Positions 50,319-54,246 of a stretch of DNA of 64,000 bases are shown here, in pieces. A program made the translations under genes and the position numbers. A model generated the notes under the pieces. It did not search any database. It had not been told where the DNA came from and saw nothing but the letters and a program-made list of their open reading frames with translations. Numbering within the stretch: position 1 is the first letter of the stretch; every line of letters begins with the position of its first letter. The stretch lies in NCBI GenBank assembly GCA_030770425.1, contig JASJFT010000009.1, positions 62,001-126,000 of the forward strand, in the 5' to 3' direction. The DNA comes from Darksidea phi (taxonomy: Eukaryota; Ascomycota; Dothideomycetes; Pleosporales; Lentitheciaceae).

Positions 50319-53300
50319 ATGCCAATAGATCACTTGCTTCTAGCGCGCGCTTCGGACGACGTTGCCAGTGCGGCAAGTGGTAGTAGCCCAAGCAGTTCGC
50401 GGCCCGACGACGTGGCGGTACGGCTTTTCTCCCGTTCGCAACCACCACGCGAAGATGATCCTAACACAGCATCAAGGCAAACAACGCCTATCGGTCCTGG
50501 GAACGCGACCCAAGGACCAAACGCGTGACCCAGCCTCTGATCAAACTTGACGATACCTGTGGCTTATACGAACTGTACCCCACGGGACCGCCCGGCCCGG
50601 CTGAAGTCGAGTACGTCCACTACAACTGCACACACACCCTACGTAGAATAGCACAATCCCTGTAGATTGCAGACCACTAACATTATCCTATTATCCAGTG
50701 TGGTCGCCGTCCACGGTCTCAACGGCGGCAGAATGAGCACCTGGACGCACAAGAAGGGCAAGATCTGGCTGCAAGACTTCCTGCCGGCCAGGTTCAGCTC
50801 CGCGCGCGTCATGACGTTCGGATACAACTCCAAGGTCGCATTCTGCAAGTCGCAGGCCCGCATTGAGGACTACTCGCGCCTGCTGCTGCAGAAGCTGATG
50901 GTGGTCAGGCGTGGAAAGGTAGGTTTGTGCATAAGCTGAGTTGGGGGGAGATTTGCTTACGATAGGCGAGGCAGGTGGCAAATAGACCACTGATCTTTGT
51001 GGCGCATAGTTTGGGCGGGATTGTGGTCAAAGAGGTCAGGAGACCATACCTCTTGAAGGGAAGTGGAGCGCTAATAGCAGCAGGCCCTGACGCTCGCCAG
51101 CATGGAGACTCAGTGGTATTCTGGTATTGCCTCGTCGACACTCGGCGTCATATTCATGGGAACTCCTCACAAGGGCGCGAAGATCGCCAAAGTCACAGCA
51201 ATTATTGGAAGCGCTGTTAACGTTATCTCCATCGGCCTTTTCAACGTGATTAACACAAGACTTCTCAAGCTCCTTAAACCAGACTCTCTGATTCTTAGCG
51301 ACATCGCCAAGCGCTGGAAACCGTACTCTGGCCCTCCCTTAGCGATCAAGTCGTTCATCGAAACGGATGGATTCAGAGGCTTGAGTTTCATGGTCAGTAC
51401 ACTTCAGAGTACAACAGCAAGACTCAATTTGCTTAGCTCACACATTCAACAAGGTCGTTCCGCAAGAATCAGCTACGTTGTCGACAAAAGATGAACCATT
51501 AGCGAATGAAGAGGTCATTGCAACCATCGCTGACCATGAAGGCATCTGTCGCTACCCATCCACAGACGATGATATATATGTCCAGGTACAGAGAGTGTTT
51601 GAGGACATACTTCACCCTTCTAATACCCAACCTGCCACAGCCTCACCACCACAATCCAATCCGCAGACTACATACGCGGACACAATCGATGCAGAGGAAC
51701 CGGACGAGCAAGAAGCCACTCAAACACTTAAAATTCATTTCCGACAACTTGAATCCAATAAGATATTGACAACCGTCGAAGTATCTGCCGACACAACAAT
51801 TGCAGATTTGAAAGCGAGCCTCCAGCAGGAAATACAAAGTATGAGCCGCGGACTTACTTGCTGGAAGATTAACTGACTTGTACATAATCCAGACTTCGGA
51901 CCCAGAGACATGCTCAGATTTCCCGGTCGACGCACTCCAATCCTTTCCACATGGACGGACGTGTTCACCATTCCTGCGGTAGTCACCAGCGGCCGGTCAT
52001 GCTACTCGCAAGAGCAGGGCTTCAAGATTAACCAGCATGAAAAGCTAATATCCTTCATGAACAAGGCTTTGCGCGGGCCGGTGGAGGCAGAGCTGCAGCA
52101 CCGCCCAGGAGCGCGGAATGGATCGTCTGACACTGTTGTGATCAGCCAGGATGGACTGCCTGGAATGTACATCCAGATGCTCAGAACCGCTCGCGTTCCT
52201 GAAGATGGGAAAGAACATCCTGCGCCTCGAGGAGAGGGCAGTCTTGAGATGTTCAACCTCCTACCTTTTGGCGGAAAGTTGTCCGCAGATGCTCTAACGA
52301 AGGGAGGAGTGTTTGTACCGATGCATCGTACGTGCTGCTAACTACTTATCTCCCTTAGCACATAATCTGAAGCTAACGGTATTTGCTCTTCGACAGGAAC
52401 GGAGGCGATGTCGATGTCATTCCAGTGTTTTAAGGCGGAGTACGCTATCCGGCCGTTTGTCGGATGTGTCAATGGACTATCAGGCGAAATCTATACCCAT
52501 GAGCAACCGCGTGCCGAAGCACGAAGTACTGACAGTCCCCAAGACTATATGGTCAGTTCTCGAGAGCCCACTTACTTGCATGGTGTTGCAGTGAAGCCAG
52601 GAAGCGTCAAGCAGTTTGTCGCTACAGACCTGACGCCCGAGTCGAACGATCCTGGAAATCCTGTTCCCTGGTCTGAGATCGGACAACGTACGGCCACGGC
52701 AGGCGAGGAGCATTCAATGAAAACCATCGAGTACCAGATGACAGGAAAGGATGTTTTCGGCGGCATTCAACTGGAAATCATCCCGCGGTCAGACGAGAAA
52801 CGCTTCGTCGCAGGCAACACGAAGGATATCTGCCAAGGCATTCGAGCTTGTTTCTCTCATTATTCCCCCCTTCCGGTGGATTCCCAGGGGTATAATGTGT
52901 CGCTATCACCTGCGGCATTAGGCCTGGACGAGGGCAGTGTCATCCACTTGAAGGACTTGTGGCGTATCCAAGATCGCAGGCCTAAGGTAGTCGGTGATCT
53001 GTTCGCAGAAGCTCCTACACCCCCGGCCTCGACAAACGAGCTCACGCTGGAAGTTCTTCCCCAGGGACGGGCAGTGGGCCTTTTCCAGGTCTTCATACAA
53101 ACCCCGAAGGGTGCGGTCCGGACGCTCGATGTCAACCCGGACGACACCGTGGGCGTGCTGAGACTACTGCTCGAGGATGTCGAAGGCACGCCGCAGGAAT
53201 CCCAGAGTCTGGTCTTTGCTGGTAAACAACTAAAAGAAGGTGAGATCTCGCAAAAGCCATCCGTATAGGACACTACTAACTTTGGTTTAGAGCGTACACT

Positions 53301-54246
53301 TACGGAGTATAATATCCAGCATGTCAGTCTCTCCTCCTACTTTCATATTTCATGAGCGTAACTAACTTTCGCTACAGCAAGACAAAATATGGCTTGTCTT
53401 CCGTCTGGTAGGAGGCGGTGCAGAAGATGGCCAGTATCGTCGAGAATTTGCGGTCGGAGAGTGGACGGAGACTTTGGTCGTGCGATTCGAGAGAAAGACG
53501 TACTCAGTCAAGGTTGGAACCCACGATACGATCGGCGTCTTGAAGAGAAGACTATACGATCTGGTTGGCGTTTTCCCAGGCTACCAGAGCCTGACAGCGG
53601 ATAGATATAAAGACGAATTGGCCGATGGTACGTTCGCTTTTACGTACATTCTTACAACCTACCCCCACTTCCTACCACTTCCCTCCAACCTCTCCTTACA
53701 CCCACCCGCTATGCTTATTAGCTTCGATGGCAAGACTAACGCAAAATATTTAATACAGACCTGGTAATTCGCCCACAAACCATGAAAAACATGTTCCTAA
53801 CCATCCGCCCTGTGGCCGTTACCTACCTCGGCATCGGCGCCGGCGGCAACATCGCTCAGCACATCCCGCGTGACGCCACGGACGCCAGTCGCTGGGACTT
53901 TGACGGCTCGCGGGTCCTGACCATCAACATCCTCGAAGCAGAGGCCTTTCAGCGGATCACGGGCGTTGCCGCGCCGCCGAGTCCATTTGGTGCCGCTGCT
54001 GCTGCTGGACGAGGTGCGGGGGCGCCTATGGCTGCGTTGGCCAGGCTTGAGATGGAGCAAGAGCGAGCTCAGGGGTGGGAACATGGGGGATGGGATGATC
54101 CTGCTGAACAGACACAAGAGTCGGAGGAGGAGATTGATTTCATGTGGGGTGTGGGGAATGAACGGGGAACGGCGACGTATAATACGGTGATTCTGCAGGA
54201 TGTGGATAGTACGTTTCCGAGGTATAGAGCAAACGCGGGGGACTGA
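50319..54246 (+). CDS. SesB-like alpha/beta-hydrolase fused to ubiquitin-like domains
   Basis: Eleven exons: 50319-50417, 50477-50610, 50699-50918, 50975-51034, 51084-51392, 51454-51838, 51893-52327, 52397-53239, 53291-53322, 53378-53627 and 53759-54246. The product is 1084 aa. Residues about 75-330 are a serine hydrolase of the type that heads fungal NLRs: VDVVAVHGLNGG, nucleophile elbow AHSLGG with Ser163, IFMGTPHKGAK, and ADHEGICRYPS with the likely His. No NB-ARC follows. Residues about 365-430 look beta-grasp-like (LKIHFRQLESNKILTTVEV, then TIADLKASLQQEI). Residues about 430-770 hold a domain with FVGCVNGLSGE, PQDYMV, VKQFVATDL and GKDVFGGIQLEII, seen in scattered fungal and bacterial proteins and unnamed here. 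Residues 776-852 align along their length with ubiquitin: FQVFIQTPKG, LVFAGKQLKEERTLTEYNIQ, and RLVGG at the end. A second beta-grasp-like segment follows at about 869-939, then an acidic tail. Function unknown; a conjugation- or sensing-linked lipase is inference. Confidence 0.83.

What the first reader, a model, noticed from the sequence alone, without database searches (positions are those of the whole stretch)
50319..54246. Alpha/beta-hydrolase of NLR type fused to ubiquitin-like domains
Seen: one continuous 11-exon frame joins a serine hydrolase (Ser163 in AHSLGG) to an internal segment that aligns with ubiquitin from the first strand to the final GG, and to at least one further beta-grasp-like segment. 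Known: SesB-type hydrolases usually sit in front of NB-ARC/NACHT modules in fungal NLRs. Inference: a lipase or esterase that carries its own ubiquitin-like module instead of a STAND switch could link membrane or small-molecule hydrolysis to ubiquitin signalling. I do not know of a described system with this order.
Basis: partly seen in the sequence, partly recalled or inferred. Interest (0 to 1): 0.92.

Follow-up and report, generated by a model that had tools for sequence, protein, structure and literature searches.

The report
Fungal esterase fused to built-in ubiquitin
A fungal gene joins an immune-type esterase, a protein domain found in many bacteria and a built-in ubiquitin in one protein; the same order recurs in other moulds, which suggests an undescribed kind of receptor that may use ubiquitin instead of the usual nucleotide switch.

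Summary
Eleven exons (50319-54246, +) give one frame of 1,063-1,084 aa: a SesB/DUF676-type hydrolase, a real ubiquitin domain (45% identical to this genome's ubiquitin; Pfam 1.1e-17 alone) and a second ubiquitin-like domain. A third candidate before the core is not supported. The bacterial member P0028 has at least 2,001 related clusters; those I scanned match nothing in Pfam, NCBIfam, PHROGs or PADLOC. The order is not unique: 7 of 14 long relatives show it (two truncated), six named, from four Pezizomycotina classes. A sister fungal clade includes proteins with the same core behind HeLo-like or PNP_UDP output domains and before RING and ankyrin repeats. No NB-ARC/NACHT was found, so it is not an NLR. 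Best reading: a NOD-less, NLR-like switch whose esterase output is coupled to ubiquitin machinery through a core probably acquired from bacteria. Architecture is well supported; mechanism is inferred. My literature searches showed no description.

The parts
50319..54246 (+). whole gene, 11 exons: 50319-50417, 50534-50610 (or from 50477), 50699-50918, 50975-51034, 51084-51392, 51454-51838, 51893-52327, 52397-53239, 53291-53322, 53378-53627, 53759-54246
   Evidence: splice sites and open frame; collinear with annotated proteins of other fungi; first intron uncertain
50606..51612 (+). SesB/DUF676-type alpha/beta hydrolase (residues 58-308); Ser144 in AHSLGG (51002-51019), His283 (51535-51537)
   Evidence: Pfam DUF676 1.4e-5; 45% identical over 240 columns to the Zopfia P0151 hydrolase; Ser in 7 of 7 that reach it, His and Glu274 in 8 of 8; catalytic roles inferred
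51724..51993 (+). segment before the core (residues 346-417), tested as ubiquitin-like; not supported as beta-grasp
   Evidence: hhalign probability 1.1; Pfam ubiquitin 0.0098 in 1 of 10; 18 of 2,000 shuffles as high
52162..52815 (+). core domain, N-terminal half (residues 474-607 and 637-668)
   Evidence: profile of 38 bacterial sequences, 76.9 + 10.8 bits
53083..53416 (+). internal ubiquitin (residues 758-833), ends RLVGG and is followed by a further G
   Evidence: PF00240 1.1e-17; 45% identity to genome ubiquitin; z 32
53468..53811 (+). second ubiquitin-like domain (residues 851-921)
   Evidence: hhalign probability 96.6; Pfam Ubiquitin_2 0.0056, below cut-off; 0 of 2,000 shuffles as high
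53791..54000 (+). core domain, C-terminal half (residues 915-984)
   Evidence: bacterial profile, 35.8 bits
54187..54228 (+). C-terminal tail VILQDVDSTFPRYR, similar to the (D/E)xDxTLPxF-type tails of five of the hydrolase-type relatives
   Evidence: alignment

Best explanation
It is a NOD-less, NLR-like switch protein. Shown by sequence: a SesB-type hydrolase domain is joined to a bacterial-type core domain, and a ubiquitin plus a second ubiquitin-like domain lie between the two halves of that core; some related fungal proteins keep the core and carry another N-terminal output domain (HeLo-like in one, PNP_UDP in one) and other partner modules (RING, ankyrin repeats). Inferred: the core (with the ankyrin repeats where present) is the sensing or assembly platform, the esterase is the output that attacks a lipid or other ester once released or clustered, and the built-in ubiquitin is a fixed, non-conjugated docking surface that brings in ubiquitin-binding partners such as a ligase, Cdc48 or a deubiquitinase and so ties output or turnover of the protein to the ubiquitin system. 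This would take the place of the nucleotide-driven NB-ARC/NACHT switch.
For: Same order in 7 of 14 long relatives (Pfam over cut-off for ubiquitin in 7 of 7 and DUF676 in 6 of 7; P0148 lacks the first part of the hydrolase and P0154 the C-terminus). Other output domains on the same core: PF17111 in P0156 (1.6e-12), PNP_UDP_1 in P0160 (1.6e-4, below cut-off; also a PADLOC 'PN-superfamily' model 8.3e-12); RING matches in P0155, P0156, P0157 and P0160 (over cut-off only in P0157) and ankyrin in P0156, P0157 and P0160. Alpha/beta hydrolases, purine/uridine phosphorylases and HeLo-type domains are named among the four largest fungal NLR output families (passages of PMC9815663). The window's hydrolase family precedes NACHT or NB-ARC elsewhere in this genome. 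Fungal cores form one group (SH-aLRT 99) of two clades (95 each). In the 8 hydrolase-type sequences the GGG at the end of the ubiquitin is invariant while K48 is kept in 4 and K63 in 2. No NB-ARC/NACHT hit in the window protein or any of the 14.
Against: No expression, activity, binding or phenotype data exist here. The window copy is one of four long branches (1.71), has a shorter insert (246 residues against 378-440 in six relatives), and has lost L8 and R74 of ubiquitin, so it may be drifting. The core has no known fold match or function. A RING was seen in only 4 of the 9 tree members of the other fungal clade, several of which look partial, and a ubiquitin-like insert could not be shown there (hhalign probability 4.3). 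Each alternative output domain rests on one protein. The ubiquitin region was not modelled with confidence.
Confidence: 0.45

Rival explanations
1. The internal ubiquitin is a cleavage site: a deubiquitinase cuts after the internal RLRGG and separates the esterase-containing N-terminal part from the C-terminal half of the core, releasing the output, in the manner of a processed precursor.
For: GGG is invariant in the 8 hydrolase-type sequences and RLRGG intact in 5 of 8, although the domain is only 45-70% identical to ubiquitin.
Against: R74 is lost in the window copy (V), P0149 (A) and P0154 (P); conservation may only reflect descent from polyubiquitin; no cleavage data.
Confidence: 0.2
2. 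It is an ordinary intracellular esterase with a scaffold tail; the modules serve constitutive localisation or turnover and have no receptor-like function.
For: Conserved presumptive catalytic residues; no ankyrin or other repeats found in the window protein; only one copy of this architecture seen in the genome.
Against: Exchange of NLR-type output domains on the same core and the SesB-NB-ARC/NACHT relatives of the hydrolase point to a signalling context.
Confidence: 0.22
3. The window copy is a decaying, species-specific remnant of the family.
For: One of four long branches in the tree, shortened insert, lost ubiquitin surface residues, AT-rich 31% GC stretch directly downstream.
Against: All 11 exons are open with GT-AG introns; presumptive catalytic residues kept; an open frame of 283 aa, 76% identical over 61% of the 450-aa query, exists on another contig (P0001).
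Confidence: 0.1
4. Two neighbouring genes, a hydrolase and a ubiquitin-like protein, wrongly read as one.
For: No transcript evidence in hand; first intron ambiguous.
Against: Proteins of other fungi are collinear from hydrolase to C-terminal tail.
Confidence: 0.03

Closest known systems
Fungal NLRs with SesB-like N-terminal domains (SesB-NB-ARC-TPR, SesB-NACHT)
   Same: same hydrolase family at the N-terminus; the fungal relatives also show HeLo-like and PNP_UDP output domains and ankyrin repeats; a SesB-like stretch followed by NB-ARC and TPR lies in this window at 16246-19779
   Different: no NB-ARC/NACHT NTPase found; a bacterial-type core with ubiquitin or RING is in its place
Unnamed bacterial family of mostly ~300-350 aa proteins (P0062, P0028; 'hypothetical protein' where named)
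   Same: same core domain, 127.5 bits with a bacteria-only profile
   Different: mostly stand-alone; none of 80 locus cores is split in two by my rule
Polyubiquitin / PF00240
   Same: one domain 45-70% identical to ubiquitin in the 8 hydrolase-type sequences, with GGG at its end; Exophiala relative P0149 is named 'polyubiquitin'
   Different: not head-to-tail repeats; embedded inside another domain, so its C-terminus is not free unless cut
Enzymes controlled by an internal ubiquitin-like domain (TBK1/IKK, parkin; recalled)
   Same: a ubiquitin-like domain inside a signalling enzyme; Pfam TBK1_ULD gives below-cut-off hits in three relatives, over the same stretch as ubiquitin
   Different: different enzyme class; here the domain is much closer to ubiquitin itself; control by it is untested

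Membership tests
Fungal NLR (NOD-like receptor) | central NB-ARC or NACHT nucleotide-binding domain | tested here: not met
   no Pfam NB-ARC/NACHT match at E up to 1 in the window protein or P0020, or up to 0.1 in the other 13 long relatives
Fungal NLR (NOD-like receptor) | N-terminal output domain of a known NLR type | tested here: met
   DUF676 over cut-off; matches of the same hydrolase lie before NACHT/NB-ARC in this genome
Fungal NLR (NOD-like receptor) | C-terminal repeats (ANK, TPR, WD40) | tested here: not met
   none in the window protein; ankyrin present in P0156, P0157, P0160 of the other fungal clade
SesB-like / DUF676 hydrolase | family profile and nucleophile serine motif | tested here: met
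   PF05057 25.1 bits against cut-off 20.3; Ser and His conserved; the motif AHSLGG has A, not G, in the first place of GxSxG
SesB-like / DUF676 hydrolase | esterase or lipase activity | not testable with these tools
   needs enzyme assay
Ubiquitin family PF00240 | family profile over its whole length | tested here: met
   63.9 bits against cut-off 25.4, profile 1-71 of 72
Ubiquitin family PF00240 | beta-grasp fold | tested here: inconclusive
   relative P0017 modelled with pLDDT below 50 over most of this region; the window segment itself was not modelled
Conjugatable ubiquitin | free C-terminal LRLRGG after processing | tested here: not met
   internal position; R74 replaced by V in the window copy; processing itself not testable
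Unnamed bacterial core family | profile match over both halves in order | tested here: met
   127.5 bits; 0 of 200 shuffles matched

The most novel reading that the evidence does not exclude
Pezizomycotina have a whole class of receptor-like proteins without a NOD, built once on a domain acquired from bacteria, in which ubiquitin chemistry (a built-in ubiquitin that may be cut by a deubiquitinase, or a RING ligase) replaces the nucleotide switch that drives esterase, nucleosidase or pore-forming outputs.
Probability: 0.3. Interest if true: 0.9.

Novelty: new variant of a known kind. Interest (0 to 1): 0.74.

Why it matters
If right, the exchangeable output domains of fungal NLRs are not tied to STAND switches, and ubiquitin can be a fixed part of a receptor instead of a tag put on it. 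It would also give a first handle on a widespread bacterial protein family for which I found no name in four profile libraries, and it makes a plain question testable: does the internal ubiquitin, or a cut after it, control the esterase?

Tried and rejected

The segment before the core as a third beta-grasp was rejected. A ubiquitin-like insert in the other fungal clade looked likely by eye but was not supported.

Library scans of the core: NCBIfam none for P0028 and four fungal relatives; Pfam none for P0028 and for fungal P0024, P0020, P0022, P0026; PADLOC none for P0062 and P0137; PHROGs none for P0062, P0137, P0028. PADLOC matched the hydrolase part of P0149 and P0151 with a model named DUF626_VIII, three models including Ankyrin and MzaA in the repeat part of P0156, and PN-superfamily and PDC-M60C models in P0160.

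Papers: (two gave nothing; three lists stopped at 10) showed no title or abstract start that describes a SesB/DUF676-ubiquitin fusion or this core. I read passages only of PMC9815663 (plus its section 10), PMC12258605, PMC12881547, PMC8195603 and PMC1325252; PMC4986451 only as a search listing. [quoted passage not shown] Only the held open-access library was searched.

The search for this order in fungi is one search of predicted proteins with words from residues 340-760; only the 7,985 candidates sharing most words were scored, so its counts are lower bounds.

Full report
Gene. The window is part of a 51.35 Mb, 477-contig genome; I infer a filamentous ascomycete from the relatives. I located the splice sites on the DNA and obtained 11 exons with GT-AG introns and one continuous frame. 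Only the first intron is uncertain; four variants give 1,063, 1,065, 1,082 or 1,084 aa.

Domains. Pfam finds DUF676 (PF05057) and ubiquitin (PF00240, 3.8e-21) over their cut-offs in the whole protein. Taken alone the hydrolase gives 1.4e-5 and the ubiquitin 1.1e-17; a second ubiquitin-like segment gives only 0.0056 but hhalign probability 96.6 against a ubiquitin profile. A third candidate, before the core, is not supported (hhalign 1.1; Pfam 0.0098 in 1 of 10 family segments; 18 of 2,000 shuffles as high). Against the genome's own ubiquitin the internal one is 45% identical, keeps K48, V70, R72 and GG, but has P for L8 and V for I44 and for R74.

The missed part. A search with 450 residues of the C-terminal region found 28 proteins, one of them (P0028) from a Miltoncostaeaceae bacterium. 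P0028 has at least 2,001 related clusters, of which the best 120 were listed. Library scans of the members I sent found no family (members named under Tried and rejected). In one-genome-per-species contigs 512 of 536 pattern-matched stretches encode a relative; the best 80 were kept, from many phyla. A profile built from 38 bacterial sequences only matches the window protein with 127.5 bits, in order, as residues 474-607, 637-668 and 915-984; none of 200 shuffles and neither the window's hydrolase nor its ubiquitin block alone matched. AlphaFold gives the bacterial core P0062 pLDDT 88.4 and pTM 0.87, with a low-confidence loop at residues 182-201. The break in the window match falls between profile positions 176 and 198, so the fungal ubiquitin block sits at or beside that loop; I did not map the two numberings residue by residue. 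By my rule the insert is 246 residues in the window, 378-440 in six hydrolase-type relatives, 99 in P0017 and 191-263 in nine members of the other fungal clade; none of 80 bacterial locus cores is split, while two other proteins on the bacterial side of the tree (P0027, P0159) are split by about 100.

Relatives with the same order. A search scored on residues 340-760 returned 14 long proteins. Seven share the order: P0148 Hyaloscypha sp. (first part of the hydrolase missing), P0149 Exophiala mesophila (named 'polyubiquitin'), P0150 Bombardia bombarda, P0151 Zopfia rhizophila, P0152 Cucurbitaria berberidis, P0153 Plectosphaerella plurivora and P0154 of unnamed origin (C-terminus missing). Ubiquitin is over cut-off in 7 of 7 and DUF676 in 6 of 7. 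The named ones lie in Leotiomycetes, Eurotiomycetes, Sordariomycetes and Dothideomycetes. They are collinear with the window protein, which argues for one gene. The presumptive nucleophile is kept in 7 of 7 sequences that reach it, and the His in 8 of 8.

Relatives with other modules. P0156 (Trichoglossum, Geoglossomycetes) has PF17111 at its N-terminus (1.6e-12; called Helo_like_N in PMC9815663, and PigL_N in the Pfam copy used here), then core, RING and ankyrin repeats. P0160 (Endocarpon, Eurotiomycetes) has PNP_UDP_1 (1.6e-4, below cut-off; a PADLOC PN-superfamily model gives 8.3e-12), core, RING and ankyrin. P0157 has core, RING and ankyrin; P0155 core and RING. Of the RING matches only P0157's is over its cut-off. 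P0020 and P0158 show no convincing family; P0159 is a TPR protein that falls among the bacteria. No NB-ARC or NACHT was seen in any of the 14 or in the window. In a quick tree of 104 cores the 18 fungal ones form one side of a branch (SH-aLRT 99), divided into a clade of nine that holds the four RING proteins and a clade of nine that holds the seven hydrolase-type relatives, the window and P0017, whose N-terminus is unknown (95 each). The window is one of four long branches (1.71), there is no bootstrap, and the root is not known. One transfer from bacteria is the simplest reading but is not proven.

Same genome. The hydrolase has 42 exon-level matches, four of them the window gene's own. Two of the matched frames read on into NACHT (L123, DUF676 just over cut-off) and NB-ARC (L126, DUF676 below cut-off), and in this same window hydrolase matches at 16342-17080 are followed by an NB-ARC and TPR frame at 17620-19779 (one gene inferred). 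The core has other copies: on C256, with a RING exon next to it (zf-C3HC4 22.7 bits, cut-off 21; joining inferred), and on C422. Neither contig is among the 42 hydrolase matches. So both fungal versions appear to coexist, and only the window copy was seen with this hydrolase.

Bacterial surroundings. Of 97 mechanically called immediate same-strand neighbours in the 80 loci, 10 match astacin, 7 helix-turn-helix and 5 protein kinase. In some Verrucomicrobia the core protein carries long extensions, TPR-like by eye, with a protein kinase gene next or near. This fits a regulated or signalling protein but does not give a function.

Mechanism. Shown: gene structure, domains, insertion between the core halves, recurrence, other output domains on the same core, no detected STAND domain. 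Inferred: that the core senses or assembles, that the esterase is the output, and that the internal ubiquitin docks partners. The alternative that a deubiquitinase cuts after the internal GG is attractive because GGG is invariant in the 8 hydrolase-type sequences and RLRGG intact in 5 of 8, but the window copy and two relatives have lost R74.

Comparison with print. Papers on fungal NLRs and cell death describe SesB-like, HeLo-like and PNP_UDP domains in front of NB-ARC/NACHT (passages). The literature searches listed under Tried and rejected showed no description of this fusion or this core; only the held open-access library was searched.

Verdict. A real, recurrent architecture with a core that I could not assign to any named family. 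Not an NLR by definition, since no NOD was found, but it may work like one.

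Noticed in passing
L080, L081, L082, L084, L085, L087, L089, L090, L092, L023, L031 (bacterial loci); also viral loci L107, L108, L109, L111, L113, L115, L116: A small gene directly upstream of the bacterial core, XRE-type helix-turn-helix in those I read (L031, L080, L089 and the viral ones), ends in the same C-terminal tag, (D/E)GxW, as many core proteins: 108 of 120 listed cores and 29 of 80 locus cores end so, and of 3,868 other mechanically called ORFs in the 80 loci only 11 do, each of them this upstream ORF of 110-165 aa. 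A shared C-terminal signal is unexplained.
   Followed up: partly
L040, L042, L045, L046, L047, L049, L055, L065, L070, L074: Astacin/matrixin-like metallopeptidase (HExGH) as immediate same-strand neighbour of the bacterial core in 10 of 80 loci.
   Followed up: partly
L058, L075, L079, L083: In these Verrucomicrobia the core protein has long extensions (526-696 aa in all) and a serine/threonine kinase gene lies next or near.
   Followed up: no
window 16246-19779: SesB-like hydrolase exons followed by NB-ARC and TPR: probably an ordinary fungal NLR in the same window.
   Followed up: partly
window 21353-22024: Patatin-like phospholipase stretch, PF01734 3.4e-10.
   Followed up: no
L105 5787-6504 (-): Frames with a ubiquitin-like tail ...RRLRGGG followed by a core-like stretch, beside another core gene; read by eye and not confirmed by Pfam or the core profile.
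   Followed up: no
window 54450-55930: AT-rich stretch (31% GC against 49% for the window) just downstream of the gene, perhaps repeat-induced mutation.
   Followed up: no
L106-L116, L147: The core also occurs in 11 IMG/VR contigs, 2 phage records and 6 plasmid records.
   Followed up: partly
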